A stretch of DNA of 64,000 nt from assembly GCA_030625885.1 (NCBI GenBank), contig DAOUPZ010000022.1, positions 1 through 64,000 on the forward strand. Reading direction: 5' to 3'. The position numbers were made by a program, and so were the translations under genes. A model generated the notes under the pieces. That model ran no database searches. It was not told where the DNA came from and worked only from the letters and a program-made list of their open reading frames with translations. The stretch comes from Clostridia bacterium (GTDB lineage Bacteria; Bacillota; DAOUPZ01). Shown in pieces: positions 3,944 through 30,291 of this stretch. The number at the start of each line of letters is the position of its first letter. Within the stretch, counting starts at the first letter, position 1.

Positions 3944-4333
3944 ATGTCTCTAATTGGAAGTAGAATTCGTGAAGCAAGAAAATTAAAAAAATTGAACCAG
4001 ACAACTTTAGGTGAAAATGTAGGCGTTGGAAAAACTACAATTTCTAACTATGAAACAGGATATAGTTTGCCAGATATAGAAACACTGGCAAAAATCGCCT
4101 CTACTCTTAATGTTTCAACGGATTACCTGCTTGGGATAAATAATAATCAAGAAGTATTTTCTACCAATAAGCATTATGAAATTGAGGAAATTATAGGTAA
4201 AACAGAAAAAACCCTCCTAAATGAGGAAGGTCTAACGTTTAATGGGAAACCTGTTTCTAAAGAAACGAAGCGGAGAATTATTGATGCCATGAGGATTGGA
4301 ATGGAAATGGCTAAAAGAGAGGAAAATGAATAG
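3944..4333 (+). CDS. XRE family transcriptional regulator
   Basis: A Cro/CI-type HTH occupies the N-terminal 60 residues (GSRIREARKLKKLNQTTLGE, VGKTTISNYETG, LPDIETLAKIASTLNVSTDYLL). The C-terminal third is a short helical tail. Two adjacent ATG codons exist; the second (3944) has the better distance from AAGGAGGG. A promoter with a palindromic operator lies upstream. The last third of this gene is duplicated as a fragment at 15408-15520. It precedes the MNT-HEPN fusion gene and may regulate it. Confidence 0.88.
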   Translation: MSLIGSRIREARKLKKLNQTTLGENVGVGKTTISNYETGYSLPDIETLAKIASTLNVSTDYLLGINNNQEVFSTNKHYEIEEIIGKTEKTLLNEEGLTFNGKPVSKETKRRIIDAMRIGMEMAKREENE

Positions 4334-4335
4334 AG

Positions 4336-9047: not shown

Positions 9048-9077
9048 AAGCAAGCCGGGACGGTTCTCGGCTTGCTT
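9048..9077. repeat. REP1 hairpin, copy 6
   Basis: AAGCAAGCC / GGCTTGCTT arms. Its edge forms part of the TAA stop codon of the helicase gene, and a T-tract follows on the minus strand, so it also ends the transcript. Confidence 0.8.
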
Positions 9078-12000: not shown

Positions 12001-12231
12001 ATTGCAAGTCCTAATTTGAGAAAGCAGCGCCTCTGTCTGATCCCGCTCATGATCCCGCACATATTTCAGCGCCCGTCTGGTAACCCCCGAAATATACACC
12101 GCTAAAATTTTTCTGGCTTCCTCGACATCCATTTTTTCTTTTTCTATGTCAAAGTCCTCTATATCCAGACTAACCAGCTCGTCTTTTAATTTTTTAGTAA
12201 TGATTTCTTCGTATATACCTTCTTTAAGCAT
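9076..12231 (-). CDS. PLD-like / SF2 helicase / DUF3427 protein
   Basis: A 1051-residue protein. Order: helical N-terminus (1-130); phospholipase D-like nuclease domain with HAKAYMF and IGSSNLSNPAL (about 215-250); DEAD/DEAH helicase with Walker A VAATGVGKT and box II VDEFHH; helicase C domain (STGQLGRGLRLS-type motif VI, here QQLGRGLR); C-terminal DUF3427 (CPLGVHGRYSTSQVLAAL to FLGTCEYVSHSG). Proteins of this architecture are often found in defence islands and resemble stand-alone restriction factors, but activity is not established. A 44-bp piece of its 5' region is duplicated at 15322-15365. REP1 copies flank both neighbours. Confidence 0.9.
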   Translation of the reverse strand: MLKEGIYEEIITKKLKDELVSLDIEDFDIEKEKMDVEEARKILAVYISGVTRRALKYVRDHERDQTEALLSQIRTCNDIIVTLSEKLDEKEFKRLKIAEEGEILTSIYARMNDIRSIKPQKAVRPVTPISQSSLFTGSHYEPNMLGELKKEIMSSDGIDLLVSFIKWSGLRCIFEELKDFTENRNGKLRVITTSYMEATDYKAVYELSQLKHTSVKISYDVDRTRLHAKAYMFKRDTGFNTAYIGSSNLSNPALTSGLEWNIKVTEKDSFDIMRKFEATFESYWHDGEFAHFNGENEQDKQRLKIALSKKNKVDDSNIHFAFDIQPYHYQKEILEKLQVERAVFGRMKNLLVAATGVGKTVISAFDYKRFKGSHKDSARLLFVAHREEILKQSIHTFRAILRDFNFGDLLVGGNIPDALDDLFISIQSFNSTRLYEKTSRDFYDFMIVDEFHHAAADSYQKLLDYYQPKVLLGLTATPERMDGKNVLEYFDHTIASEMRLTEAIDRKLLCPFQYFCVTDTVDLSKLKWSRKGYAIRELENVYTSNKIRSLQVVRSIHKYVADIEAVKGLGFCVSIEHAKYMADFFTNAQIPSIALYAGVERKIREAAKSRLVNGDIKFIFVVDLYNEGIDIPEVNTVLFLRPTESLTVFTQQLGRGLRLSDGKECLTVLDFVGQAHRNYNFEEKFRALIGKTKHSVKHYVEQGFFNLPKGCFIQLERQAKDYILRNIKESAHSRKNLVSKMKYFQEDTGLELTLHNFLQHDRLSLYDFYGKNGDRTFRRMMVEAGLKEDFSCLNEKAITKRLPGLFHINSRKWINFLLDYIHGAPANSEVEKLMLGMFFYSFYHGKPDSEGFLNIEEGVNKILEQDEMRQEILDVLQHNYENIDFMEIENDFSFACPLGVHGRYSTSQVLAALGYYNEESCPAFREGVKYFKDKKLDIFFITLNKSEKDFSPSTMFEDYAINEKLFHWQTQSRVSEGSATAQRYINHKQTGHQMALFVRAYRVEDGYTAPFVFLGTCEYVSHSGNRPMSFIWRLKAEMPPLFVPKANKNIL

Positions 12232-14754: not shown

Positions 14755-15303
14755 TTATTCTTCTTCAATCCATTCAATTTCAAATGCGGTACTAAAAATA
14801 TAATCTCCATAACCCCAACCAATATCGGAAGAGTTATGTACCAAACTGTTAATCCTTGTTTTAAATTTCTGATAAGCCATATCATCCGGCTGTGAATTTA
14901 ATTGATAAACAAACTTTGCAAATACGCTGCAAAGGCTGTCATAAAATTGTTCATCAATATCCCCATATTCATTGGTAAACTCAGTCCCACATTCAACATA
15001 ATATAACATTAAATCCAACGTTGTTATTACATCTCCGACTTTTTTAAAATCTGATATTAATTTTTTGGCATTTTTAATAGAAAATGTAGCTCTAAGACTA
15101 TGGGGAAAAAATACATCATGCATTTTTTGCTTATAATCATCCAATAACTCAACTAAATAATCCTCACCGCCAAACTCAGCGTTGATCATTTATTTTACTT
15201 TTTGGTTGCTTTTGTACAACCTACAAACGACCTCAATGAGTTCATTTTGTTGAAGTTGCCTTAATTCTCTTTTTAATTCCGTAATCTTCATTTGTTTTGG
15301 CAT
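14755..15303 (-). pseudogene. DUF6155-like gene interrupted by an in-frame stop
   Basis: From the ATG at 15303 (SD AAAGGAT) the frame reads MPKQMKITELKRELRQL, QNELIEVVCRLYKSNQKVK, then TAA (15190-15192), then continues in the same frame with MINAEFGGEDYLVELLDDY and KNAKKLISDFKKV to 14755. The two parts together match the start and body of a DUF6155-like protein of about 180 residues, where the stop replaces what is normally a charged residue. Either a nonsense mutation killed the gene or the 144-residue downstream part is translated from the ATG next to the stop, although it has no SD. Confidence 0.6.
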
Positions 15304-15321
15304 GTTGATAAATCCTTTCTG

Positions 15322-15365
15322 CTAAATTGAGACAGCAACGCCTCTGTCTGATCCCGCTCATGATC
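15322..15365 (-). pseudogene. Fragment of the PLD-helicase gene
   Basis: 44 bases nearly identical to 12011-12054 near the 5' end of the helicase gene, in the same orientation. Too short to function; a relic of duplication or recombination. Confidence 0.75.
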
Positions 15366-15375
15366 TTCCACACAA

Positions 15376-15405
15376 AAGCAAGTCAAGAACCGTCCCGGCT
15401 TGCTT
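15376..15405. repeat. REP1 hairpin, copy 9
   Basis: AAGCAAGTC / GGCTTGCTT arms, lying between the two gene fragments of the scar. Confidence 0.75.
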
Positions 15406-15407
15406 CA

Positions 15408-15520
15408 CATAAGGAAGACCAACGTTTAATGGAAAGATTGCTTCAAATTAAATGAAGCGAAGAATTGTTGATGCCATGAGGATCGGAATGGAAATGGCTA
15501 AAAGAGAGGAAAATGAATAG
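15408..15520 (+). pseudogene. Fragment of the XRE repressor gene (3' third)
   Basis: About 113 bases match 4220-4333, the end of the XRE gene, including the final codons and TAG stop, with scattered substitutions. The start, promoter and HTH are missing. It marks the left border of the BREX island. Confidence 0.8.
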
Positions 15521-15551
15521 AGGTACACATGTTTTTCCTTTTATTCATAAA

Positions 15552-15749
15552 CTATATAAACAACTCACAACCATCCCTTTTAAAATCTTCAATTCTCTCT
15601 TCCAGTATCTCTTCTGTTGTTTCAAAATAATCTGCCAAGCACTTTATACAAAAATATTTATCAATATCTCTGGATAACAACTTCTTACTAACAGCAATTT
15701 CATCTTTATTCAATAGTGCTTTGCAGATTCTACATTTATGTTTTTTCAT
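15552..15749 (-). CDS. Small zinc-ribbon-like protein at the end of the BREX operon
   Basis: 65 residues with two CxxC pairs (CRICKALL at the N-terminus, FCIKCLADYF in the middle), then an acidic helix and DGCELFI at the end. Its ATG overlaps the brxL stop (ATGA type), so it is translationally coupled. No family recognised. It may be an accessory zinc-binding factor of the BREX system. Confidence 0.7.
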   Translation of the reverse strand: MKKHKCRICKALLNKDEIAVSKKLLSRDIDKYFCIKCLADYFETTEEILEERIEDFKRDGCELFI

Positions 15750-17188
15750 GCGCCCTCCACCACTTTATAATAAGGAACTCCTTTTCCTCGATATTCAATG
15801 TCAATAATTGCGAGTTGATTTTTTATTATACTACGCATGCCAATAGCAGGATTTAAACAGTACTTTTTAAAATCAATAATATTTACATCTTCTACGCAAC
15901 GAACATGTGGAAATAACATTTTTAAGTATGCTGTGCATATTCTTTTTACAGCTTCAGTATCCCTGGTATCAGATCCAAATGGGACAATTACAAGTTCATC
16001 TACAATGCCTCTATAACTTACATCTTCTCTCAAAATATGCATGATCTCCGAAAAGTACTCCGAGTTTAACGCCCAACCATCCATTTTTAAATCTTCATGC
16101 ATTCGAGGTATATCCCAACCTTTTATAAACCCATGAAATCGATCAATCAAGGCACTTTCATGAAATACTTCAGGCAACTCCCCAAACATATCAATATTAA
16201 TATCCATACTTTCATGTTTAATATTACCAAGCAGAATGACTCCCGCATCACCACTACCTTCTTTATTACCAACAGTAAATTTACCGCTCTCTAAATAGCC
16301 TTTTAGTGCAGCTCTCATTTCAGAAGTATTTGAAAATGTGATAGTTTGTATTTCATCTAGTGCCACAAAATCATTAGTACAAACTAAACCATCTGACCTT
16401 TTTTGCATATCAAAGAACATTTTAGCTCTTGACATTATTCCACCACTAGATAACCAACCATTTTTACTTATCTGACCAAACATGTAAGACTTTGCTGTGC
16501 CTTTAGGAGCAAGCTCTATCAGATTAATTCTCTTCTCAATAAATGGTAATAATCGAGTTAATACTGTCAATTTTTCGTTTTCACTTTCATATCCAGCAGC
16601 ATTATAATCAATGGCTCCCAGCACAACATTGATCCATTCATCTATGGTGAAATAACTTCTTGCATCTTTAAAGTAATCGATATCAATCTGATAAGGGCAA
16701 AACGATTGAAATCCTAAAAGCTTTATTTTACCTGGTTCAGCATTAGAAACAAATGGCCTATAGCCAAGCTCTACAACACCCCATATATCTTTTGATGAAA
16801 GTAAGTGCTCTTTACATCTATCCCACACACGTGGCTCAATAATCGTCTCTTTATTTTTCAAGTTATAATCTGGTAACGAAAATGTGATTTCAGATTTACT
16901 AATATTTATATCAACATTTATTTTGGCCAGGATTTTAACTCTTTCATTTTCCATTACAATTCGGTCTTTTATACTAACCCATTCTTCCTTTTGTGGTAGC
17001 ACTCTTTTTATATACTCACTTACTTCATCAACGTCAATATTTCCGTTGTCGTCAGCAAAACGTTTTAAAATCCAATCACGCAAAAACGAAGGTAAGTTAA
17101 CTGTCTTAAAAAAATTGTTTTTGCGAAGATTCTTATATACGATCATATCTTCAAAATATTCATAAATTTTATTTTTTATTTCACTCAT
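15746..17188 (-). CDS. brxL: BREX AAA+ protein BrxL, short form
   Basis: 480 residues. The AAA+ core carries ELAPKGTAKSYMFGQISKNG (Walker A at 227-234) and FVALDEIQTI (Walker B about 275-280), characteristic of BrxL. Full-length BrxL proteins are near 680 residues and end in a Lon-like protease domain; here the chain stops after the ATPase part. The Walker A has A in place of the usual G before the lysine (TAKS). Fifth gene of the BREX operon, 12 bp after pglZ. BrxL proteins form DNA-binding rings needed for phage exclusion in type 1 systems. Confidence 0.85.
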   Translation of the reverse strand: MSEIKNKIYEYFEDMIVYKNLRKNNFFKTVNLPSFLRDWILKRFADDNGNIDVDEVSEYIKRVLPQKEEWVSIKDRIVMENERVKILAKINVDINISKSEITFSLPDYNLKNKETIIEPRVWDRCKEHLLSSKDIWGVVELGYRPFVSNAEPGKIKLLGFQSFCPYQIDIDYFKDARSYFTIDEWINVVLGAIDYNAAGYESENEKLTVLTRLLPFIEKRINLIELAPKGTAKSYMFGQISKNGWLSSGGIMSRAKMFFDMQKRSDGLVCTNDFVALDEIQTITFSNTSEMRAALKGYLESGKFTVGNKEGSGDAGVILLGNIKHESMDINIDMFGELPEVFHESALIDRFHGFIKGWDIPRMHEDLKMDGWALNSEYFSEIMHILREDVSYRGIVDELVIVPFGSDTRDTEAVKRICTAYLKMLFPHVRCVEDVNIIDFKKYCLNPAIGMRSIIKNQLAIIDIEYRGKGVPYYKVVEGA

Positions 17189-17200
17189 CTTAAAATTCTC

Positions 17201-19465
17201 CTATATGTCCAAAATATTTTCTTTTATGCTTCTAACTAATGTAAAATCCACCTTACCAACTTTATTACCATCAGAATATATCTCGCCAATATATTTTCCA
17301 GCCTTTTTTATATCAAGTATACATGTCCAATGATAACCATCAAATGTACATTCATAGTAATCATCATAGATCCTTAATTGAACATCCTTATAAGGCTTTG
17401 AAATAAAAAACTTAATGATACATTTTTGTCTTAACTTGAATTGTATCTCTTTACCACCTACAATGCCTATGTTTACTTGCTCACCTAATCTTCTAAATTC
17501 AATTACTGGAATAGCTACCTCTTCAAGAGTTGCACCTCCATGAGTTTCTACTGAAGGTGCACCTTTCCCCCCAAATCTATCATAATTTGCTAATACACAA
17601 TATCGCCCTTCATCATCTTTTGTCCAATATGGTATGTTCAACTCTTCTATTCCTTCATAGTATTCACAGCATCTCCCCAACTCACTTACTTTGCTATCAA
17701 CTGGATAGGTATGTTTCTTCTTATTTATAACGGCTAATCTGCTCGCCCCATGATCCGTCACAACAACAACTTTTTCACTACTATCCAATCTATCTAAAAC
17801 TATATTAATGATTTCCTTTATATACTCTATTTCTTTTGTAATATGTATAGGAAGTTTAGTTTTTTCAAAATTATACTTGTTTTTCCCTTTGTGTTTCAAC
17901 GTATCAATCAATCTATAATCAGGTTCTCTTTCAATTCCTTCTAAGAAATATTTATTCATAGCAGTAGTTGAGGGAATATTAGCTCTAACAATTGACATAT
18001 CAAAAACCAAATTATTTTTCTCACTCAAAGAACTAATTATACTCATAAATTCCAATCCTAAAGCATCTACAAACAGAACCGACGCATTATTTTTATCAAG
18101 GTGCTCAAAAACTTGATTTCTTGTCTGTAACGCATTATATGGCCTTTCAATTGCAATATTATTTACTAAAGACAAAAATTCATTTGTTATTTTATTGCCA
18201 ACTTTGTTCAGCTTATATTGATAAAAATAATTATTAAACATTAAATCTTTATAATTATATTTATCTAAATAATTATATAACATAGGGTAAATATTTCTAA
18301 TCAAAGACAGTTCATGGTTGGATAGTACGTTTTGCAAAGAACACCACTTAATAATTGCTTCTCTTTCAACCTCAAATACATCAGTCAAATAATATATAAT
18401 ATTATTACCCTTTGCTTCTGCTTTCTTAACATATACTCTCATTATAGATTCGTTCAAAATTGAACTCAGTCGTATTCGCCTTTGAGCATAATATAAATCA
18501 TTAATTGTGTCAAAATCTAAAATAACATCAGCGTATTGGCTTCCAAATGCTTCATAATTATCGCATTTTTGCATAACACTTTTAATATATGAATCTGGAA
18601 GATTACTAGTTTTAAGTGTTAGCCATAATAACCATCTCTCAAAATCGGTATATGCTTTCCAATCTGCAAGACATCTCTCAAGTCGAGAAACTTCTCCAAA
18701 TTTATTAATAACATATTTATTAAAGGGTTGCCCTTTAATTGCTTTACTTACCCCTCTCCATTGCTCATCCGACCCATAATTTGCATTAATTTCAGCAGGC
18801 AATAATCCTGTAGCAACCAAATAACCATGAGGAGAATCAATTATTATTGATTTGGGATAATTATTACTAATGTAATTTGCCAATTCAGTCTTTACTATTA
18901 AATTCTTATTCTCTTTAATTTCCATATGGTACAAAAGAGATTTATAACCATTACATATATTACAGTTGCTTATATCTATGATTGCATTATCTAAAAACAC
19001 ACATTCAACGTTCTCTTCATATTCATCATTGAGGAATAATATGTTGTTTTTTAATCTTCTATCACATTTAACAAATTCATTAAGACTATTACCTCCATTG
19101 AAAAACAAAAAGATGACTTTAGATGTTTTGTTTAGATTGTACAAAATAGTATTTATTATTGACCTCATAGTTTCATCGCCACTAAATATCAAATGTTCAT
19201 ATAGTCCGAAAACAGCTAAACTTGTATTGCTATTTCTAATTTCTTCTAACATTTCAATCCAGTCAGGAAATTCATCCGTATGCTTGCAAAAACTGCTTGT
19301 ATTTAATATTTTTATCCTGTTCTCAAGATAGACTTTTAATTGCTTATAATTTTGTATGCTATGTACATTTACAATTAAAGCACCAATGCCAGAATTAAGA
19401 TGATTGAAAGACTTTAGATAGTTTTCAATTCTTTTTTTGACTTCGTCAATATTAATACATCGCAT
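17201..19465 (-). CDS. pglZ: BREX phosphatase-like protein PglZ
   Basis: 754 residues. The C-terminal half is an alkaline-phosphatase-superfamily PglZ domain: metal ligands in VDALG (D467), nucleophile region PSTTAMN (498-504), TDHG (570-573) and ETHGG (640-644). The N-terminal half is the variable PglZ extension, consistent with the type 4 BREX form. PglZ is a signature protein of all BREX types; the target of its hydrolase is not known. Very AT-rich codon use, unlike the flanking chromosome. Confidence 0.88.
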   Translation of the reverse strand: MRCINIDEVKKRIENYLKSFNHLNSGIGALIVNVHSIQNYKQLKVYLENRIKILNTSSFCKHTDEFPDWIEMLEEIRNSNTSLAVFGLYEHLIFSGDETMRSIINTILYNLNKTSKVIFLFFNGGNSLNEFVKCDRRLKNNILFLNDEYEENVECVFLDNAIIDISNCNICNGYKSLLYHMEIKENKNLIVKTELANYISNNYPKSIIIDSPHGYLVATGLLPAEINANYGSDEQWRGVSKAIKGQPFNKYVINKFGEVSRLERCLADWKAYTDFERWLLWLTLKTSNLPDSYIKSVMQKCDNYEAFGSQYADVILDFDTINDLYYAQRRIRLSSILNESIMRVYVKKAEAKGNNIIYYLTDVFEVEREAIIKWCSLQNVLSNHELSLIRNIYPMLYNYLDKYNYKDLMFNNYFYQYKLNKVGNKITNEFLSLVNNIAIERPYNALQTRNQVFEHLDKNNASVLFVDALGLEFMSIISSLSEKNNLVFDMSIVRANIPSTTAMNKYFLEGIEREPDYRLIDTLKHKGKNKYNFEKTKLPIHITKEIEYIKEIINIVLDRLDSSEKVVVVTDHGASRLAVINKKKHTYPVDSKVSELGRCCEYYEGIEELNIPYWTKDDEGRYCVLANYDRFGGKGAPSVETHGGATLEEVAIPVIEFRRLGEQVNIGIVGGKEIQFKLRQKCIIKFFISKPYKDVQLRIYDDYYECTFDGYHWTCILDIKKAGKYIGEIYSDGNKVGKVDFTLVRSIKENILDI

Positions 19466-19477
19466 TAATAATGCCTC

Positions 19478-22400
19478 CTATTTATCTTCAAGAATTGCTA
19501 TTCCAACATCCAAATCTTTTCGCACAAGCTCCTTTAGGTATTCCTTTGCAGAAGCCGGTTCCATACTATCAATTTTGTCCACTACCTTGCTAATTTCTCT
19601 TATCTCATACACACCTTCTGCAAGATTTCTAACAATTTTATCAATTTCCCTATTACCATACCAATCATAAACATTACTACCTAATCGACTACGCAACTGA
19701 AATTTGGTTTCTTCTACCGATAGTAATACTGCATATTTCTTTAAAATATTATTTTTAAATGCCTTATTAATAACTGATATATCGTTAATGTTTTTGAATA
19801 CTTCGGAAGTTTTCATAAAATTAATAGCCTGATCGATTTCATAATCATTTAAAATTCGATTATTATTAACTGCATCACATACCATTTTAGCTTTATCGAT
19901 ATTACTATCAAACATATAAAGTATAGGAATATCATATTTAAATGACCAATCGTTAGGATTTATTGTATTCGTTTTTTCTTTCCAAATCTCTAATAATTCC
20001 GTTTTTTTCAAAGTTTTCTTATGCTTGGCAATCTTCTCTAAGAGCTGAGATTTATATTCATCTTTTCTCAGCGAAAATGATGACGGCATTGATTGAAATA
20101 CATCATGTATGTCATCATTATTTAATCCAAATAATTCATTTGAAAACATTTTACTAAATAATTCTCTTTGAGTTTCAAACATCATTGTAACTATTTCGCC
20201 ATTTTCAGAAAGGCTCTCTGCAAATGATTTTATCTGCGCCATCGAAAGGTTGGAATTTTGATGAATCTCTTTAAATAACTTCAACAAATCACTAATACTT
20301 TTATATTCATCTTTAAAAACATAGTAAGGCAACCTTACGAGTGAAAGCTTAGTCCTCCATGCATTAATTGACTCCTGATACGAAGAAACTGGCTGGGTAA
20401 ACTTATTACTTTCATGAATAAATCTATATTCTTGTACCACCTCATCAAGCTTTTTGTCCAAATGATCTTTGTGGAATAGCCATGATATCTCCTCTGTTAT
20501 ACCTGAAAGACATTTTAATAACATATAAGCATATTGACCATTATTGTAGATGTTTTTAGCAAGTGCAATTAATTCTGGTTTTGTATTCTGTATATAAAGC
20601 AACATACCTTTACGAAGATTTTCAGAAGACATAATTTCCCTAATACCATCAATCAATCCATTATGCTTCGAACACAAGAAACCAATCCTTTCAGCGATTT
20701 CTTTTTCTTCTTTTTCACTATTGGTGTTATTTGCTAATCCGCAATATGCAGCAACAATTTCAGCTATTTGGTCTCCAAGTGATAAACCTTCATCTTTTAC
20801 ATATAAACCTAATGTCCACAATGGATAGCTATACTTCCTAATAGCGTTAATAATCTCATTCTTTGTATTTGATGTAGATGTACAACGGTCAATACTTATA
20901 TCAAAAATAGAAGCTGATGCTTCTAAAAATTTCCTTTCATAATCAGTCATGACAAGGATATATTGAGATTGTATTGAACCCCGTACATCCTTTATAACCA
21001 TATCAATCATATCTGCTAGTTTTTCAGAACTCATGAATTCTGTAATAGAACCATTTGACCATGTATATTTATCTTGGCTGTATTCTTTCAACAAATAACC
21101 TAATATAATTGCAGACAGATTGCACTTCATAAATCCATATGGCTTGTCCTCAACAAACTGCCAAATATCATTAATAGATACCCTATCATTTCTGTCAAAC
21201 TCGCTTTTAATGAATTTATCTAATTCTATTTTAATCTTTGATATATTATGACCAGGCAGTGTTTCCCAATATTTGTCTACTCCCCAAATATCATATAGTT
21301 TAATATCTATGCAAGCAGAGCGATAAATACTCTTCAATTCAGATTTATTTCTACTTTTAGGACGTTTGCATGAAATGCCTTGCAAAGCCCCAGCCCTTCT
21401 ACTTGTATCAGCAAACATATTACTGAAAGTAGAAATATTATCAATATTATTAGGAAACATCTTATCGTTATATCGCTGTAATTCACTTTTTAGTTCAACT
21501 AACCCATTAGATATTCGTTGCTTATTACCTTCAATATATACAAATAGATCACCATACTTAAGCGCATCCGTCCATTGAGATGCTTTTTTTTCTGCTTCTC
21601 TACTTAAGTTTTCTACTGCACCATTGTCCTTTCCTAACCAATGTTTTGCCCTTGCCATTAATTTTATAATTTCATCATATCGATCATTTGTCAACGGACA
21701 CAACGAAGTATCGACAAACACTACTTTCTGTTTAATCTCCTGCGCTACTTCATTTATTTTTTCACTAATAACCCCTGCTTCCATATCATTATGAGCAAAT
21801 GTTATTACAAGGGGAATCTTATTAATATAACTGTTTGTATCAATCATATTAATCATCTTCCTAAACCCATTATTATCAATAGTCGCATAATGGACTTCAT
21901 ACCTTAATCCTAATGCATCTTCAAGACATATTTCGTCTTCAACATCGTACTTATCAATAATATCCCGCAGTTTTACCGTTTCTCTCAACTTATTTTCAAT
22001 CTCAATTAAGCTTTCCATATCTCCGATAGTTTTAACTATAACAAATTCTTCTCCATTTCTAAATGGTCTCTTATAAAGGACTTTTTTATCCACAAGCTGT
22101 TCAAGCTTCTGTGATACTCTACCAGTACCCAGATTTGTACCTTCATATGCTAATTCCAGGTTCTTTTTAGTTGACCTGAACTGCTCCACACTTCCCGCCG
22201 TTTTTTCAGAAATTCCCTGCAGTAAAAGTGCTGTTTTTAAGACTTTCTGCTCTTCTATATCTAGATTCTCATAATATTGTTTATATGCATTAAGTAAGTT
22301 TCTTAAATTTTCTTCCAGTTCCCCTCTGCCATCACTATAGAAATAATCCCACAACATATCGCAAGTAAGCAAGCGCCACTCATCATAAGGACCATTATTA

Positions 22401-23659
22401 TTAATATACCAGGTAAAGCTCTTAGCTGAATATTCTGTAGCTTCGCCTTTAATAAATTCAAACATACTTCTCTGATTTGATTGAAAACGCTCTGCTAAAT
22501 GCTTCAGTATGTAGGCTGTATATGGATGTATTGGAAGAACACGTTTCAAGTCATCTACCGTAACATTTGTAGTTGATTCTGCTACTACTACCGCTGAGCT
22601 CTTCACATATCCACTCAAATCATCGCGGATTTTATTCCATTCTCCCTCAATGATACTATCCTTTTTAATAGTAAGTGCTGAACCAATCAGTTTAAAAGCA
22701 GTATTTTCCGGCATTTCTATCTGCACTACTGGTTTAACAAAACGATCCAATACTTTTCTATCATTACTTTTCTCATGAAATAATTCAGATGTTGCATGAG
22801 TTACTATAACAAAATAAAATGGTTTTCTTTCACTTATCTCTGCAATATCCTGAAAACCCGTTAGATTATTTTTGTTATTTAAAAAGAATTCAGTAAATTC
22901 ATCCCAAATAAAAAACAAACGTATATCATTTTTGTCAACCACATTTTCAATCCATTTTTTAAACTCTTCAATACTTAGTGAAAATACCGTTATACCTTCG
23001 TTATCTGAAAGCATGAATAATTTGTTTATAATCAAATCTGCTTCATCAATTGAAAGATTTTTCAATGCATTTACAACTGATTCCACGCTATTATAAGGGC
23101 TAAAATCATGCTTATATTTTCCTGTTATAAGGCTGCTAATATACGCCGCAAAATCACTATCTTCCAGTTTTCTAATAATAGCCTCTTTAAGCGTACTTTC
23201 TCCCATATGCAAAACATTCTCTCGAACAAGCGCTTTTTTTATGCTTTCCTGCATATACATTATAAGCTTATTATCGCTATTTATGCCTGAAGAACCATAT
23301 CTATGAACAACTACAGTTTTTTTATGGTTTTTCTGACCTTCAAGCCTACCATGCCAGTCCATGTCTAAGCAATATCTTTCAAAATATTTTTTAGTTTCTT
23401 GTGTATCTGTTTCCAAAAGGCTCTTTAATGTCAAGACTGCATGGGATTTACCTGTTCCATATGCACCTGTTACCCAAAGCGACTCACAGTATTTAGGTTT
23501 ACGCTCCATGACCTTAATGGTATCTTGAAGCAATTGGAAGAAAGTGTCATGTGGATAAAAATCTTTCCACGATACTTTTCCTTCATCAATAAGCTCCTTA
23601 TTAACCGCTGGAGAATAGTTGGGATCAACATCAAAATACGTTTCATAAGTTTTGTTCAT
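19478..23659 (-). CDS. brxC: BREX P-loop ATPase BrxC
   Basis: 1393 residues, a very large STAND-like ATPase. Walker A GAYGTGKS is at 65-72 and Walker B FFIWDEF near 270. The rest is mostly helical with no recognised catalytic motif. BrxC/PglY ATPases are obligatory BREX members and interact with PglZ. It starts 13 bp after brxP and ends 12 bp before pglZ. Confidence 0.88.
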   Translation of the reverse strand: MNKTYETYFDVDPNYSPAVNKELIDEGKVSWKDFYPHDTFFQLLQDTIKVMERKPKYCESLWVTGAYGTGKSHAVLTLKSLLETDTQETKKYFERYCLDMDWHGRLEGQKNHKKTVVVHRYGSSGINSDNKLIMYMQESIKKALVRENVLHMGESTLKEAIIRKLEDSDFAAYISSLITGKYKHDFSPYNSVESVVNALKNLSIDEADLIINKLFMLSDNEGITVFSLSIEEFKKWIENVVDKNDIRLFFIWDEFTEFFLNNKNNLTGFQDIAEISERKPFYFVIVTHATSELFHEKSNDRKVLDRFVKPVVQIEMPENTAFKLIGSALTIKKDSIIEGEWNKIRDDLSGYVKSSAVVVAESTTNVTVDDLKRVLPIHPYTAYILKHLAERFQSNQRSMFEFIKGEATEYSAKSFTWYINNNGPYDEWRLLTCDMLWDYFYSDGRGELEENLRNLLNAYKQYYENLDIEEQKVLKTALLLQGISEKTAGSVEQFRSTKKNLELAYEGTNLGTGRVSQKLEQLVDKKVLYKRPFRNGEEFVIVKTIGDMESLIEIENKLRETVKLRDIIDKYDVEDEICLEDALGLRYEVHYATIDNNGFRKMINMIDTNSYINKIPLVITFAHNDMEAGVISEKINEVAQEIKQKVVFVDTSLCPLTNDRYDEIIKLMARAKHWLGKDNGAVENLSREAEKKASQWTDALKYGDLFVYIEGNKQRISNGLVELKSELQRYNDKMFPNNIDNISTFSNMFADTSRRAGALQGISCKRPKSRNKSELKSIYRSACIDIKLYDIWGVDKYWETLPGHNISKIKIELDKFIKSEFDRNDRVSINDIWQFVEDKPYGFMKCNLSAIILGYLLKEYSQDKYTWSNGSITEFMSSEKLADMIDMVIKDVRGSIQSQYILVMTDYERKFLEASASIFDISIDRCTSTSNTKNEIINAIRKYSYPLWTLGLYVKDEGLSLGDQIAEIVAAYCGLANNTNSEKEEKEIAERIGFLCSKHNGLIDGIREIMSSENLRKGMLLYIQNTKPELIALAKNIYNNGQYAYMLLKCLSGITEEISWLFHKDHLDKKLDEVVQEYRFIHESNKFTQPVSSYQESINAWRTKLSLVRLPYYVFKDEYKSISDLLKLFKEIHQNSNLSMAQIKSFAESLSENGEIVTMMFETQRELFSKMFSNELFGLNNDDIHDVFQSMPSSFSLRKDEYKSQLLEKIAKHKKTLKKTELLEIWKEKTNTINPNDWSFKYDIPILYMFDSNIDKAKMVCDAVNNNRILNDYEIDQAINFMKTSEVFKNINDISVINKAFKNNILKKYAVLLSVEETKFQLRSRLGSNVYDWYGNREIDKIVRNLAEGVYEIREISKVVDKIDSMEPASAKEYLKELVRKDLDVGIAILEDK

Positions 23660-23672
23660 AACCGGCTCCCCT

Positions 23673-26015
23673 CTAAAACAAATCTACAACATCAGCAGAT
23701 GTTTTTTCTTCATTCAGTACAATACTCTCTAAATCGTGAGTAAAGGTTGACTTTATAAATTCAGGATAATTGATAGATAAACCATTGATAATTTTTTCTA
23801 TCTCATCTCGATTAAGTCCAAATAGCTGTGCCGGAGTAAGACCCTCTCGTTCTACATTCATATCCATTAATGTGGATAATGTAAATCGATAGTAACCATT
23901 ACACGCTTCAGCAAATTTATAAATGCTGTATAATACAACTCTTGAATCGATATTCTTTATCGGCACCCTAGTAGTGGATACTAATGATCTACTCTTTTTA
24001 TTCCCTCTTGTTTTTTCATCAAACTCGCACAAACCAATTTTTAACTTTTCACCCAATGGCTTCGTAAAATAAAATATATTTTTAAATGCATCAACAATAT
24101 TTCTTTTTTGTAGCTGCGTAACATCCTCACCAAGCATATCTTTAATTTCCTCAGGTATATATCTTTTGTTGAACTCTATATTTCTCACATACCATGCAAA
24201 TTGCGGTGTATAGGACAAATTATTAAAAATAATAAGCCATGAATTATTATCATCAACACCTATTCTTTTAATTTCTTTTGCTAAATAACTGAATGAATTC
24301 TTATCCATTAATTCTGCATCTCTCAAGAAGCGTTTAAATGCCTGTATCATTTTTATCCCTAAATCTAATGGATTATCTTGCCAAAATGAATCTTCTGTTT
24401 GTAAATATACCGCCAACCATTTTTTGTGAAATCCAAATGTTAAATATCTATCAATCCCCTTCATATTCCTGTTTTCTCCCTTCGGTTCTCTTTTAGAATA
24501 ATACGCTAAGCAACCATATTCAATTTCATGACATCTACCGCATTTTTTACATTCATCTTTTATAGTTACTCCTTCTCTGTTCAATTCAATATAACCATAA
24601 GGACAATTCATTTCACACACTTTACATCCTATACAATATATAGCTTTTCTTAAAGCACTACGAAATAACGAAAGTGTTTTTATATCAGCTTTTGTATTTT
24701 CAAGATTATAAATCTTAACACATGTATTATTCATAAACACTTTGTAGTATTTACCGTTTCTTTCCAATGCATAACTATCAGTACTTGTAATAATAAATTC
24801 TCCTACTGTTTTAAGCCATTCAGTTAACTTTCTTCTATCTACATCTACTAAAAAAGTTATAACATTTCCATCTTTTTTCTCCATTATTGGATTGCAACTT
24901 ATATTTAATTCTTTCCCACTCTTTCTTTTTTGCCAACCACCATTATCAATAAACTCATTCATTTTTTCTTCAGTAGTAAAATTTTTGCTAGATGTGTTTT
25001 TTATACAGTCTATATATGGCTCCATTTGGCTACTATAACTCATTTTTTTCATATATTCATGTCTTCCTGATGACATTGGACAAACCAAACAACCAACTCT
25101 GCTATTTCCCTTTTTATAAGCTCCATTTAGAAGTAGTCCCTTCATAAAAATATACATATATACCTCAGCTGAACTCCATTCTAATATTGGATGAAAACTA
25201 AATTGCCCAATGTGTTTTTTACTATTAGTTATTTGCTCATATCCAGATCTAGCCAAGCTTTCTTCCCTTCGTATACCCGTAAACGCCATACCTGTAAAAT
25301 CTGGCTTTCCAGTTTTATTTCTAAGATATGCAATTTGAGGTAATGTTTTATGTACACTACAACACCAACGAATTGTACGTGCAGGAGGACCAAATGCATT
25401 CCATGTATCAATTGGGTTGTATTTTGACTCTGCAGTATGAAATTCTAATCCAGGATACTTATTTACTATTTTACCCATTAGATTGTACGTATCCCTTAAC
25501 TCCATTCTCGTATCACCAAATACAACATTAAATTCATTTGACGGTAATGCTCTGGCAACCAAGTCTAGTGTTACAACCGAGTCTTTCCCTCCGCTAAAAG
25601 CCACATAAAATACATCAATACTCATTTTTTTATGCTTTGTATATTGCTCATAAATATTCTTTAATGTATCATTAACAATTGATTCCATAACTATTTTGTT
25701 TTGGATTTTATTTACCATTGCTTGAATATCAACTGGTTTAATGATTAGATCTTCTTCAAGTACTTCCAACTTAGGTTTTGTAAATAAGCTCCCACCAATT
25801 GTTTTAGCCACACATATTCCATGATAATAATATCTATTTGCTTCCGCCCACATCAATGGTGCTGAATCATCTTTAGGATATTGCCAATATTTATCAAATC
25901 CCAAAATATCTAATTCTTTATAATAAACAGGTCGAATATCATTTCCGATTGCATCAGTCGCATTAGTAGTGATAATATATCCACCTGTTTCGTTGTCCCA
26001 TATATGTTTATACAT
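23673..26015 (-). CDS. brxP: BREX-4 PAPS-reductase-like protein BrxP with Fe-S and DUF4007-like domains
   Basis: 780 residues. Residues 130-340 are a PAPS reductase/DndC-like adenine nucleotide alpha hydrolase with SGGKDS (141-146). Residues 461-502 hold eight cysteines in two ferredoxin-like clusters (CIGCKVCEMNCPYG, ECKKCGRCHE). From about 525 a helical domain (FGFHKKWLAVYLQTEDSFW, LGIKMIQAFKRFLRDAEL) looks like DUF4007, which accompanies DndC-type proteins. BrxP marks BREX type 4, which lacks the PglX methylase; sulfur chemistry on DNA has been proposed by analogy with DndC. It overlaps the upstream gene by 8 bp. Confidence 0.87.
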   Translation of the reverse strand: MYKHIWDNETGGYIITTNATDAIGNDIRPVYYKELDILGFDKYWQYPKDDSAPLMWAEANRYYYHGICVAKTIGGSLFTKPKLEVLEEDLIIKPVDIQAMVNKIQNKIVMESIVNDTLKNIYEQYTKHKKMSIDVFYVAFSGGKDSVVTLDLVARALPSNEFNVVFGDTRMELRDTYNLMGKIVNKYPGLEFHTAESKYNPIDTWNAFGPPARTIRWCCSVHKTLPQIAYLRNKTGKPDFTGMAFTGIRREESLARSGYEQITNSKKHIGQFSFHPILEWSSAEVYMYIFMKGLLLNGAYKKGNSRVGCLVCPMSSGRHEYMKKMSYSSQMEPYIDCIKNTSSKNFTTEEKMNEFIDNGGWQKRKSGKELNISCNPIMEKKDGNVITFLVDVDRRKLTEWLKTVGEFIITSTDSYALERNGKYYKVFMNNTCVKIYNLENTKADIKTLSLFRSALRKAIYCIGCKVCEMNCPYGYIELNREGVTIKDECKKCGRCHEIEYGCLAYYSKREPKGENRNMKGIDRYLTFGFHKKWLAVYLQTEDSFWQDNPLDLGIKMIQAFKRFLRDAELMDKNSFSYLAKEIKRIGVDDNNSWLIIFNNLSYTPQFAWYVRNIEFNKRYIPEEIKDMLGEDVTQLQKRNIVDAFKNIFYFTKPLGEKLKIGLCEFDEKTRGNKKSRSLVSTTRVPIKNIDSRVVLYSIYKFAEACNGYYRFTLSTLMDMNVEREGLTPAQLFGLNRDEIEKIINGLSINYPEFIKSTFTHDLESIVLNEEKTSADVVDLF

Positions 26016-28182
26016 CTTCTAGTCCTTTTACCTTTCTATAAATAGTAGATAACTGAGAGTATCTTGCACTGCTTAATAATTTTTCTTCCAACCAAAACTT
26101 TAACATTTCACTCTCGGATGAAAATGGATAGATACTGTTGCTATCTATTGCAGCCGTTAACAATAAACTCTCTCTGTCTTCAATCCCAAATCCCTTTTTA
26201 ACAAAAACCCCCCTGGCTTTTTTAATGCCATGATAGTAATTAATAACTCCTAGTGTTTTGCAAAATAAACGCACTACACTTTCTAACAAAAACTCATTCC
26301 ACCTATATTTTATTGTAGGCAAAAATATAAAGCTATCTATTTTTTGAACAGGTAAATATTTTTTATCCATGTATCCAAACAATGAATTCTCTATTTCTTC
26401 AATATCCTCTAGTGTAATATTAAAACTAGATACAGATACGAATTTTTCTTTATTCACTCTTACATATCTTTCACCAATATGATTTAAAAATATATAATAC
26501 AATTCAGGCAAACCATTACTCTCAACAAACTCTTGCAGCTCAGAAAAAGTAAAGGTATCTTTATCTTCTAAATATCCCAACACAGCTTCCACCCCAGAAA
26601 GCGTTTGATTGGGCCTACCAACAAAATTATATTTAAACTGTAGCTCACCATTGTTTATATACTTCAAATACTTTAAAATTTGCTTATCATTAGCAAAATC
26701 ATTATCTACTATCAATGTTGGAAATTTCTTCTTTAAAACGGGGATTAAATTCTTTATAGTAGTAAAGCCTTTCTGAGTCTCTTTTAGTAGTGTATTGATA
26801 AGCTCTGATATGCAAGATTCATCTAATAATACATTATCAGCATGAAGAAACATATCATACGATAAACCTATGACAGCTAAATTTTTATTCAATACTTTTT
26901 CAATCTCCCTTGGTGCAATACCTGCAAATTTTTGTATTAATTCTGTTTTCTCAACTGCAAATTGTTTGTTCTTTAAATAATCTACAATCAAACTTTCAGT
27001 ATTCAGCTCCATTTTTCCCACTTGGGTAATTATTCCATTTAAAATCATAACACCATTGCCCATATAGAACTTAATAACATTATTAAGCATAGCAGTAGAA
27101 TAAATATTTGTATATAACAGCTTCGATTTAAATTCCTCATACAATACTTCGGAAGAAAGAAAGCCATTCTGTACTGATACTATCCTAATAACAAAATCAA
27201 TTATATTTTCTAATAACACTCTTTCAATTTTTAAATTTCCAGGAGACATCCTTAAATCATCATCAATTAAAACAGTACATAATTTTATAGCTGTCCTTAT
27301 TGACTCATCATTATATAAACTGACATGAACTTCTTCTGATTTAAGTCTTTCTTTAAATTTATTAATATCAATAAAACTATCAAGATGAATCCCGTGAGAA
27401 AAGTATCGGTCAAGTATATTTTGGCAAATACTTTGTTCATTATTGAATTTTTTGCGCTCAATATATTCTTTAGCTCTATTTAGCAAAGGCTCGTATGATT
27501 CGCTAGTTTTGAAAACAAACTCCTGCTGCTCATCCTTTGTATTAATTTCAGTAGATTCATCGATATTTACTGGTATGTTACTATTCTTCTCCTCTAACAC
27601 AGATTTAGTAATAACTGTCTTTGTTTTCACAATAGGCTGAGCATATGGTAATATGATCATGCTTTGTAAACGTTTTTCTATTTTAGCAGCATATTCCGAT
27701 ATTTTACAAAATTTGCATATATTGTTTTTAAATATGAACTCATCTAAATTCATCTCTTTTAAATGTTCCGCTGTAAATATACCATTTTCCATAAGTGCAA
27801 TATTAAATGGTATAAACTCTGGTTCCGGTAAAAGATGAATTATACTTTTCGTAGACATATGGTTAGCCAAAAGGGGATTAATAGCTTCAGAATATTTACC
27901 AGAAGCTCTATCTGTTAAATAATCCTTGTATTGAGATAATGCAGCACTATACATATAATGTCCTCGTTTATTAATCGTTTTAAACTCATCATTTTTTTTG
28001 AGCAATGTTTCAATGATGATAAACAATTCAATATTGTGAATTTCTTCAAATGATCTAGGAAAGACATTCATTTTTAGAAGAAGTTTTTCAATAGTCTTTA
28101 AAGCCCTAGTGTAGTTTTTCACTGTTTTTTCTGATTTGTTTTTCTTATTACTCATATATAATTTAAATCCATTTACACTCAA
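26008..28182 (-). CDS. Uncharacterised first gene of the BREX-4 operon
   Basis: 724 residues, no family recognised. The N-terminal 110 residues (KSEKTVKNYTRALKTIEKLL, RGHYMYSAALSQYKDYLTDR) resemble the small helical domain found at the start of some restriction and integrase-type proteins. A CKFCK motif follows near 178. The body looks like a chain of winged-helix-like units (for example TFTFSELQEFVESNGLPELY). TTG at 28182 is preceded by GGGAGTG; ATG at 28155 is the alternative. It overlaps brxP, so it is part of the system. Possible role: DNA recognition or targeting. Confidence 0.75.
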   Translation of the reverse strand: MSVNGFKLYMSNKKNKSEKTVKNYTRALKTIEKLLLKMNVFPRSFEEIHNIELFIIIETLLKKNDEFKTINKRGHYMYSAALSQYKDYLTDRASGKYSEAINPLLANHMSTKSIIHLLPEPEFIPFNIALMENGIFTAEHLKEMNLDEFIFKNNICKFCKISEYAAKIEKRLQSMIILPYAQPIVKTKTVITKSVLEEKNSNIPVNIDESTEINTKDEQQEFVFKTSESYEPLLNRAKEYIERKKFNNEQSICQNILDRYFSHGIHLDSFIDINKFKERLKSEEVHVSLYNDESIRTAIKLCTVLIDDDLRMSPGNLKIERVLLENIIDFVIRIVSVQNGFLSSEVLYEEFKSKLLYTNIYSTAMLNNVIKFYMGNGVMILNGIITQVGKMELNTESLIVDYLKNKQFAVEKTELIQKFAGIAPREIEKVLNKNLAVIGLSYDMFLHADNVLLDESCISELINTLLKETQKGFTTIKNLIPVLKKKFPTLIVDNDFANDKQILKYLKYINNGELQFKYNFVGRPNQTLSGVEAVLGYLEDKDTFTFSELQEFVESNGLPELYYIFLNHIGERYVRVNKEKFVSVSSFNITLEDIEEIENSLFGYMDKKYLPVQKIDSFIFLPTIKYRWNEFLLESVVRLFCKTLGVINYYHGIKKARGVFVKKGFGIEDRESLLLTAAIDSNSIYPFSSESEMLKFWLEEKLLSSARYSQLSTIYRKVKGLEDV

Positions 28183-28268
28183 ACAACTACACTCCCAACC
28201 TTAACCATAATATGATTATCATTTTGTTAATAAAATCCTTTTATCATTACATTTGTTTTCATTATTTT

Positions 28269-28548
28269 CACACCATAATCATATTCATCTTAATTAAAGC
28301 TTCTTGACAGGTTAACAAAAATTCAAATGACCCTAAATAGGATAATACATAAAAGAATCTATGTTTTCCTTTATATAGACGTATTTTACATCCGCTTGCC
28401 ATAGCTGGATAAAGCTGATTTTCTTTTTTTACCAATCTTACATAGATGTTTCGTTTTTGCTTTTAATTTAAAGCATAGGACACCCAGTTCTTTGTATAAG
28501 CAATATACTTTTTTCTTATTAATGATCAGTCGGTATTTTGTCTTTAGA
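28269..28548 (-). pseudogene. Decayed IS3-family transposase (OrfB) remnant
   Basis: On the minus strand three frames in succession give KTKYRLIINKKKVYCLYKELGV, then LWQADVKYVYIK, then GKHRFFYVLSYLGSFEFLL. Together these follow the order of the HTH_21 and integrase core start (LWxxDxxYxYI...RFFYLL) of IS3 transposases. At least two frameshifts separate them, and no start or terminal inverted repeat was found. It borders the BREX operon promoter side. Confidence 0.65.
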
Positions 28549-29021
28549 ATATGTATTCTCTTTTATATAGACTAACGTCCTGTTAAATATATAATATCAT
28601 TTGATATAGACTTATCCAAGAGTATATAGGAACAAAAGACAGTTAACTCTTGGCATGAAATAAATTCAATTTCAATTAGTAATTATCAAGTAATTATCTT
28701 ATGCAACAGTTGATATTTTAAAAAACTTGTAGTAGTTGATTACTATCTTCATGATAATAACTTGGCTTAATAAACTTGTGTAAAATTTTCTTAAAACATC
28801 ATAAATTTCTACATATTTACTTAATTTCCTTCAAAAACCATACATATTTTACTTGAACGAATCATCTTTAACAGCAAGACACAATAAATTGAACAACTCT
28901 ATAAAATCTCTAAGTGGAAATAACAGTACTTATGCTATCCAAAATTTCTCCTATGGTTAAATTCAAATAATCCTATCATTGCTTCAAAAGGTTTTAAACC
29001 AAATATCTTCACCATCCACAA
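28549..29021. other. AT-rich gap without an identifiable gene
   Basis: About 470 bases upstream of the IS3 remnant. Only short, broken frames are visible, such as HLRDFIELFNLLCLAVKDD on the minus strand, possibly more of a decayed element. No RNA gene or clear promoter seen. Confidence 0.4.
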
Positions 29022-29029
29022 CAAAAAAA

Positions 29030-29098
29030 TGCGCTGAATAAGAATATTCTCATTCAACGCATCAAAATATATCGCAAGAACCGTCCCCTTGATATGTC
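29030..29098. repeat. REP2 element, copy 1
   Basis: Stem ATGCGCTGAATAAG / CTCATTCAACGCAT (29030-29062) followed by a tail containing AAGAACCGTCCCCTTGATAT. It abuts the HIT gene stop and can terminate it. Confidence 0.75.
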
Positions 29099-29614: not shown

Positions 29615-30019
29615 TCATTCTGCAACATATTTGGTTATAAACTCTGTAGGCGTTATTATCTCCGGCTTCTCTACGTCTACTTCTGCAAAATCTTTATCTC
29701 CTGTCACCAGTATATCTACATCTTCAATAATAGCAGTATACAAAACAGGGTAATCCATCTCATCTCTTATCTCAAACAATTTTGTATTCATCGTATCGGG
29801 TGTATAAACAAATTCATAGGGCAAAGCAGTCAAAAAATCATCCAAAGCCAATAATTTTCCTTTAAATTTTCTTGAAACAACTTGTTTTAATTCCTCTATG
29901 ACATATGAAGATAATACAATTTTATGTTCGTCTGAAATTGCAGCTATTATTTCATTCATTTTCTTACTTTTGAATACAATAGCAGAAATTAATACGTTGG
30001 TATCAAGCATAATCCTCAT
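29615..30019 (-). CDS. PIN domain toxin (VapC-like ribonuclease)
   Basis: 134 residues of the COG1569-type PIN family: MLDTNVLISAI at the start gives the first acidic residue, IVLSSYVIEEL the second, and DVDILVTGDKDF the C-terminal acidic pair. The start overlaps the antitoxin stop (TAATG). With the AbrB-type partner this makes a type II toxin-antitoxin pair; RNA cleavage is the family activity. Confidence 0.88.
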   Translation of the reverse strand: MRIMLDTNVLISAIVFKSKKMNEIIAAISDEHKIVLSSYVIEELKQVVSRKFKGKLLALDDFLTALPYEFVYTPDTMNTKLFEIRDEMDYPVLYTAIIEDVDILVTGDKDFAEVDVEKPEIITPTEFITKYVAE

Positions 30020-30291
30020 TATTTATCACCTTGCTTTTCTGCATGTATTTCGCGTCTAACTTCTTTAACTAGATTTACAACGTCTTGTTCTGTCTCAAGA
30101 CCTAATCTTTCAGCTTCCCCCTCAAATTCATCTTGAATTTTTTGAAGAGCAACCATAGCAGAATTTGCAATTATCATATTCCCGTCTTTTTCAATAAAAA
30201 CAACCTTATCTCCCTCTTTAAGATTAAGTTTTTTTCTGATATTGATAGGTATTGTGACCTGCCCCTTTGACATTACCTTTGCAAGTTCCAT
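30019..30291 (-). CDS. AbrB/MazE-type antitoxin
   Basis: 90 residues. The swapped-hairpin AbrB DNA-binding domain fills residues 1-48 (AKVMSKGQVTIPINIRKKLNLKEGDKV) and an acidic helical tail (DEFEGEAERLGLETEQDVV) likely wraps the PIN toxin. First gene of the pair; expected to autorepress. SD GAGGTGAGA precedes the ATG. Confidence 0.88.
   Translation of the reverse strand: MELAKVMSKGQVTIPINIRKKLNLKEGDKVVFIEKDGNMIIANSAMVALQKIQDEFEGEAERLGLETEQDVVNLVKEVRREIHAEKQGDK

What the first reader, a model, noticed from the sequence alone, without database searches (positions are those of the whole stretch)
15552..28182. Complete BREX type 4 operon on an AT-rich island
Six genes in one direction with 4-13 bp gaps or overlaps: unknown 724-aa protein, BrxP (PAPS reductase), BrxC, PglZ, BrxL, small zinc protein. 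BrxP plus absence of PglX is the known definition of BREX type 4 (Goldfarb classification). The region is visibly more AT-rich than both flanks, contains no REP1-REP3 repeat although these are frequent on both sides, and is bordered by an IS3 remnant and a scar of gene fragments.
Basis: partly seen in the sequence, partly recalled or inferred. Interest (0 to 1): 0.8.

Follow-up and report, generated by a model that had tools for sequence, protein, structure and literature searches.

The report
BREX-4 operon with overlooked modular subunit
This is a complete copy of a known bacterial anti-phage system (BREX type 4, which marks DNA with sulfur), and its first gene, called unknown, turns out to be a modular, apparently DNA-reading protein present in nearly every related system but missing from the defence catalogues we could search.

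Summary
In detail: six genes on the minus strand at 15552-28182, with 12-13 bp gaps or 4-8 bp overlaps, 31% GC against 39% in the rest of the window. BrxP, BrxC, PglZ (NCBIfam BREX-4 PglZ, 394 bits, cut-off 140) and BrxL match BREX type 4 profiles with active-site motifs present (one Gly-to-Ala in the BrxL P-loop); there is no methyltransferase. As a system it is a known kind: BREX-4 is published as phosphorothioate (PT) based.

What is not ordinary is the first gene, the 724-aa 'unknown'. Its C-terminal ~470 aa belong to a family found directly upstream of BrxP in 77 of 78 related loci with room to see it (bacteria of many phyla, one archaeon), median gap 4 bp. It has no Pfam, NCBIfam or PADLOC family. 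AlphaFold models it as six tandem winged-helix domains. In front lies a variable N-terminus built from three recurring modules in 18 arrangements. In 399 genomes of the phylum all seven strong matches sit directly upstream of BrxP. Weaker relatives sit beside PbeA/PbeC, another PT-linked defence module.

Best reading: a core DNA-reading subunit of the main BREX-4 branch, with swappable recognition modules. The role is inferred. Two key publications' data (Yuan 2024; supplements of Rakesh 2026) could not be read.

The parts
26008..28182 (-). First gene, 724 aa (TTG start): N-terminal SAM-like module (res. ~4-94), disordered linker (~100-226), C-terminal array of six winged-helix domains (~248-662) plus a helical tail
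   Evidence: Pfam Phage_int_SAM_1 E 7e-5 (1.9e-6 for the module alone); AF2 model mean pLDDT 82.5, array mostly above 90; family profile hit 1.7e-103; family directly upstream of BrxP in 77/78 related loci
27916..28167 (-). M2 module (tyrosine-recombinase core-binding-like helical domain, residues ~6-89) of the first gene
   Evidence: module profile; Pfam; model
26197..27441 (-). Six tandem winged-helix domains (residues ~248-662); the last, with FPxxGxxWNxFLLES, is the most conserved
23673..26015 (-). BrxP, 780 aa: PAPS-reductase domain (SGGKDS loop 141-146; C218, C219, C309, C312), ferredoxin-like eight-cysteine region (C461-C502), C-terminal SspB/DUF4007-like region
   Evidence: PADLOC BrxP 781 bits, SspD 42 bits, SspB weak; PF01507 2.6e-29; conserved columns
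19478..23659 (-). BrxC ATPase, 1393 aa, Walker A GxYGTGK 65-71, Walker B WDEF 252-255
   Evidence: PADLOC BrxC 686 bits, SspC 70 bits; conserved columns
17201..19465 (-). PglZ type 4, 754 aa, metal-site residues D467, D571-H572-G573, H642 intact
   Evidence: NF033445 BREX_PglZ_4 393.6 bits, cut-off 140
15746..17188 (-). BrxL, 480 aa, AAA+ without Lon domain; Walker A reads GTAKS where all 70 relatives have GTGKS
   Evidence: PF13337 5e-108, PF20442 4e-30; TIGR02688 408 bits
15552..15749 (-). 65-aa four-cysteine (C6, C9, C34, C37) putative zinc protein, last gene of the operon
   Evidence: homologue in 61/62 loci with BrxL and downstream sequence; conserved cysteines
15190..15551 (.). Scar downstream of the operon: 44 bp copied from the helicase gene, one 32-bp repeat, 115 bp alike to 4221-4335
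28183..29098 (.). AT-rich upstream region with a possible IS3-type remnant and a terminator-like stem-loop at 29028-29063
   Evidence: HTH_21 E 0.026 (weak)

Best explanation
The region is one BREX type 4 operon. Shown by sequence: BrxP, BrxC, PglZ and BrxL of the type-4 kind, no methyltransferase, a small zinc protein, and a conserved six-winged-helix protein encoded first. Inferred from published work on BREX-4, Dnd and Ssp systems: BrxP, fed with sulfur by a housekeeping cysteine desulfurase and working with the BrxC ATPase, puts phosphorothioate marks on host DNA, and PglZ and BrxL act against unmarked invading DNA. Inferred here: the first gene makes a DNA-reading adaptor; its constant winged-helix array docks onto the BrxP/BrxC/PglZ machinery and DNA, while its exchangeable N-terminal modules (here one recombinase-like SAM domain) contact DNA or an invader and set what is recognised.
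For: Profiles. Active-site residues conserved against 70-89 relatives. Family directly upstream of BrxP in 77/78 loci, median gap 4 bp, in Bacillota, Bacteroidota, Spirochaetota, Synergistota, Planctomycetota, Nitrospirota, Verrucomicrobiota and one archaeon. In 399 genomes of the phylum (33 with any BrxP match), all 7 strong matches to the array lie directly upstream of BrxP; for G265 the contig ends inside BrxP's N-terminus. Pairwise identities of the array track BrxC (rho 0.86) and PglZ (0.84) as closely as BrxC tracks PglZ (0.84). Six winged helices with high confidence; nearest solved folds are the winged-helix arrays of SelB and UFL1. Variable N-terminus of three module types in 18 arrangements; L055 and L106 share 95% BrxP identity but differ by an M3 module. 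Weaker homologues stand next to PbeA/PbeC-type genes in five genomes.
Against: No functional evidence at all. Correlated identities could reflect joint inheritance rather than contact. The family is missing from one divergent BREX-4 branch (L032, L033, L038, L039, L040) and from L087, so the core reaction does not need it everywhere. Winged helices also mediate protein-protein contacts, and UFL1, a top fold match, is not a DNA reader. The 80 loci were chosen as nearest to the window's BrxP, so 77/78 describes that branch. Modules M1 and M3 have no recognised family.
Confidence: 0.6

Rival explanations
1. The first gene is a transcriptional regulator of the operon (comparable to DndB control in Dnd systems), not part of the defence machinery.
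For: First in the operon; all winged-helix; some relatives carry a Sigma70 region 4 or an RNA polymerase alpha-CTD-like domain.
Against: Far larger than a usual repressor; evolves in step with BrxC and PglZ as the core genes do; N-terminus varies in content and length (0 to ~950 aa) while the rest stays; relatives sit inside Pbe defence modules.
Confidence: 0.17
2. The first gene is an invader sensor or scaffold that works by protein contacts; its variable modules detect phage proteins or DNA structures and trigger PglZ/BrxL.
For: Rapid change and module turnover as expected of sensors; tandem winged-helix arrays can be protein scaffolds, as in UFL1.
Against: The recognisable modules (recombinase core-binding SAM, Sigma70 r4, alpha-CTD, HARE-HTH) are DNA-associated folds.
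Confidence: 0.2
3. The operon is decayed or inactive in this genome.
For: No cysteine desulfurase in the operon; P-loop glycine of BrxL replaced by alanine, unlike all 70 relatives; scar and possible IS remnant at the edges.
Against: All six frames open and residues kept at nearly all sites that are at least 93% conserved; the genome encodes several desulfurase-like proteins elsewhere; a P-loop ending in AKS is normal in MCM helicases (established knowledge, not tested here).
Confidence: 0.1
4. The region is an Ssp-type or Dnd-type phosphorothioation system rather than BREX-4.
For: BrxC and BrxP also match SspC, SspD and DndC profiles.
Against: BREX profiles score far higher, and PglZ and BrxL are present.
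Confidence: 0.02

Closest known systems
BREX type 4 (brxPCZL; Goldfarb classification; PMC12839542; Yuan et al. 2024 preprint cited there)
   Same: All catalogued components, order BrxP-BrxC-PglZ-BrxL, zinc protein, no methyltransferase.
   Different: Encodes first a six-winged-helix modular protein that the main text of PMC12839542 does not describe and no searched profile library holds; lacks the operon-encoded cysteine desulfurase present in about half of BREX-4 taxa.
SspABCD phosphorothioation system
   Same: BrxC, BrxP and the BrxP C-terminus resemble SspC, SspD and SspB (PMC12839542).
   Different: PglZ and BrxL present; no SspE/SspFGH in the operon; six-winged-helix protein besides the triple winged-helix SspB-like part.
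Pbe module (PbeABCD) of Dnd-Pbe systems (PMC6459918, PMC10853773)
   Same: A large relative of the array, in some cases with a Sigma70 region 4, stands next to PbeA/PbeC-type genes in five genomes.
   Different: Similarity partial and weak (E 1e-7 to 1e-17); different partner enzymes; the papers describe PbeB as a small protein.
BrxA, DndG, SspB, FokI winged-helix modules (PMC10853773, PMC12839542)
   Same: Tandem (winged) HTH DNA-binding architecture in restriction and modification systems.
   Different: Six winged helices instead of two or three; separate gene; variable N-terminal modules; no detectable sequence match.

Membership tests
BREX type 4 | BrxP (PAPS-reductase) replaces the methyltransferase | tested here: met
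   PADLOC BrxP 3.7e-235 over 779 of 780 residues; no methyltransferase among the operon genes
BREX type 4 | PglZ of the type-4 kind | tested here: met
   NF033445 393.6 bits against cut-off 140
BREX type 4 | BrxC/PglY ATPase | tested here: met
   PADLOC BrxC 3.4e-206; Walker motifs intact
BREX type 4 | BrxL | tested here: met
   TIGR02688 408 bits (cut-off 329); PADLOC 723 bits
BREX type 4 | DUF4007 (SspB-like) region, often fused to BrxP | tested here: inconclusive
   BrxP aligns end to end with the full-length BrxP profile, and residues 522-778 match a C-terminal-only BrxP profile and SspB weakly; Pfam gave no DUF4007 hit at E 0.01
BREX type 4 | Cysteine desulfurase in the locus (about half of taxa; optional) | tested here: not met
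   None in the operon or scar; several Aminotran_5 genes elsewhere in the genome. Not a required feature: published as frequently replaced by housekeeping enzymes
BREX type 4 | Phosphorothioate modification of host DNA | not testable with these tools
   Needs mass spectrometry or PT-seq
BREX type 4 | Phage exclusion activity | not testable with these tools
   Needs infection assays
BrxP-linked winged-helix array family (defined here) | ~470-aa C-terminal array and position directly upstream of BrxP | tested here: met
   1.7e-103 to the family profile; 8-bp overlap with BrxP. The window sequence was one of those used to build the profile
SspABCD | SspB/SspC/SspD with SspE or SspFGH and no PglZ/BrxL | tested here: not met
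   PglZ and BrxL present; BREX profiles score far above Ssp ones

The most novel reading that the evidence does not exclude
BREX-4 has an unrecognised core subunit that gives it exchangeable recognition: a fixed six-winged-helix dock carrying interchangeable N-terminal modules (helical M1, recombinase-like M2, alpha/beta M3) that determine which DNA sites are sulfur-marked or which invaders are detected, with a sister version serving Pbe phosphorothioate modules.
Probability: 0.35. Interest if true: 0.75.

Novelty: new variant of a known kind. Interest (0 to 1): 0.5.

Why it matters
How BREX-4 chooses the DNA sites it marks is open: it lacks the methyltransferase that supplies specificity in other BREX types. 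A subunit that is nearly universal in the main BREX-4 branch, evolves with BrxC and PglZ, and carries exchangeable putative DNA-binding modules is a direct candidate, and could matter to anyone who clones brxPCZL without it. It also means that BREX-4 definitions in defence-finding tools may be incomplete.

Tried and rejected
Pattern scans with single proteins found no relatives; only the BrxP alignment worked. No array homologue on PLSDB plasmids (tblastn) or in IMG/VR viral contigs (single-protein pattern query, which finds close relatives only). No solved protein is alike in sequence (best E 0.5). The nearby PLD-helicase-DUF3427 gene (9076-12231) was considered as a BREX-4 partner and rejected: besides the window it lies near only one BREX-4 locus, seen twice as L037/L112. 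Remnants of a cysteine desulfurase beside the operon were sought and not found. Flanking repeats marking an insertion were sought and not found. A second taxonomic sample (98 genomes) was too poor in BREX-4 to add much. Foldseek on the three-module member L055 gave only weak matches, mostly winged-helix arrays, and did not identify M1 or M3.
Full report
OBSERVATION. The stretch has 31.0% GC against 39.0% for the rest of the window. The claim about repeats holds: a 32-bp repeat with about ten copies in the left flank reaches the edge of the operon (15374-15405), another family lies at 29-37 kb, and none lies inside. AT-richness is not unique to the operon, since some flanking genes are as low in GC3. 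The downstream scar is made of copied pieces, including 44 bp of the window's own helicase gene. The IS3 remnant has only a weak HTH_21 match.

IDENTITY. BrxP, BrxC and BrxL match PADLOC profiles at 781, 686 and 723 bits, and PglZ passes the NCBIfam BREX-4 PglZ model (394 bits, cut-off 140). Sites at least 93% conserved across relatives are almost all kept: the SGGKDS loop and the cysteines of BrxP, Walker motifs of BrxC, metal-site residues of PglZ. One exception stands out: the BrxL P-loop reads GTAKS where all 70 relatives read GTGKS. MCM helicases naturally carry AKS there (established knowledge, not tested), so this need not be inactivating. No methyltransferase is present. By published work (PMC12839542 section 34; PMC11931770) BREX-4 makes phosphorothioate DNA. 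So the operon as such is a new member of a known kind.

THE FIRST GENE. It has no family except a recombinase-like SAM domain at its N-terminus and no PADLOC or NCBIfam family. BLAST against BREX-4 loci from an even sample of the phylum showed homologues directly upstream of BrxP in four loci. A BrxP alignment then drew in the 80 nearest BREX-4 loci from 84,980 species genomes. An iterated profile of the C-terminal part found the family in 77 of 78 loci with at least 900 bp upstream of BrxP (window included), median gap 4 bp; three further loci are cut at that point, and L087 is the one absence. Hosts cover many bacterial phyla and one Methanomassiliicoccales archaeon (L129).

SPECIFICITY OF THE ASSOCIATION. 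The 80 loci are biased to the window's branch, so the test was turned round: the array alignment was searched in 399 genomes of the phylum, of which 33 have any BrxP match. Seven genomes have strong matches (E below 1e-80). Six lie directly upstream of BrxP. The seventh (G265) lies at a contig end, and the last ~59 codons there encode the N-terminus of a BrxP. The family is absent from a divergent BREX-4 branch (L032, L033, L038, L039, L040). On the BrxP tree the array label needs three changes, fewer than in any of 500 shuffles, though the sampling bias weakens that statistic. Pairwise identities of the array track BrxC (rho 0.86) and PglZ (0.84), as BrxC tracks PglZ (0.84). This fits an obligate partner but would also follow from joint inheritance.

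ANATOMY. AlphaFold2 with 59 sequences gives six tandem winged-helix domains at residues 248-662 with pLDDT mostly above 90, a helical N-terminal domain at 3-94, and a disordered linker (the domain count is my reading of the helix-strand order). Foldseek's nearest solved structures are the winged-helix arrays of SelB and UFL1, with low overall TM-scores as expected of flexible arrays. The sixth domain, with the motif FPxxGxxWNxFLLES, is the most conserved. In front of the array, family members carry from nothing to about 950 residues built largely of three recurring modules: M1 (30 copies, five helices in the model), M2 (75 copies, SAM-like, up to five per protein) and M3 (33 copies, alpha/beta), in 18 arrangements counted; the model of L055 shows all three types. 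A smaller group has Sigma70 region 4 in the N-terminus. L055 and L106 share 95% of BrxP yet differ by an M3 module. The window's protein has one M2.

RELATIVES ELSEWHERE. Weaker matches to part of the array are proteins of about 960-1320 aa that stand beside two ~700-aa genes in five genomes. In the two loci scanned (L149, L151) these are a helicase and an ABC ATPase that match PbeA and PbeC at 800-807 and 750-923 bits; in L148, L150 and L152 the call rests on the same gene order and sizes. Pbe is a defence module linked to Dnd phosphorothioation in archaea and bacteria (PMC6459918). The large array protein differs from the small PbeB described there.

OTHER COMPONENTS. The 65-aa four-cysteine protein occurs in 61 of 62 loci where it could be seen, so it too is core; PMC12839542 mentions such a protein as a companion of the desulfurase. 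A cysteine desulfurase lies near the end of the operon in about 49 loci but not here; the genome has several other desulfurase-like genes.

MECHANISM. Shown: gene content, conservation, predicted fold, modularity. Inferred from the literature: phosphorothioate marking by BrxP with BrxC, action against unmarked DNA by PglZ/BrxL. Inferred here: the first gene product is a DNA-reading adaptor whose constant array docks to the machinery and whose modules set recognition. BREX-4 lacks the methyltransferase that gives other BREX types their target, which is why a separate specificity subunit is plausible. Rivals are an operon regulator and a protein-contact sensor.

LIMITS. No experiment. Novelty was checked against Pfam, NCBIfam, PADLOC and open full texts only; the Yuan et al. 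2024 text is not held and supplementary files could not be opened, so the gene may have been noted there.

Noticed in passing
window 16487-16501 (BrxL residues 230-234): P-loop GTAKS instead of the GTGKS found in all 70 BrxL relatives; MCM-like, possibly tolerated.
   Followed up: partly
window 9076-12231: PLD-ResIII helicase-DUF3427 protein (1051 aa), a possible second defence gene; a 48%-identical homologue lies directly upstream of the array gene in L037/L112.
   Followed up: partly
window 15190-15551: Mosaic scar containing 44 bp of the helicase gene and 115 bp alike to 4221-4335, suggesting repeat-driven rearrangement near the operon end.
   Followed up: partly
window 29615-30291: MazE/AbrB-like antitoxin plus PIN-domain pair, a likely toxin-antitoxin module next to the BREX operon.
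   Followed up: no
L149:6491-10453, L151:7532-11002, L150:8041-10917, L148:9638-13045, L152:9259-12624: Large winged-helix proteins, some with Sigma70 region 4, beside PbeA/PbeC-type genes in bacteria; a possible undescribed Pbe component.
   Followed up: partly
L061:4173-9968: Two tandem array-family genes (1364 and 564 aa) in front of one BrxP.
   Followed up: no
L034:6162-6878: A 238-aa unknown protein between the array gene and BrxP.
   Followed up: no
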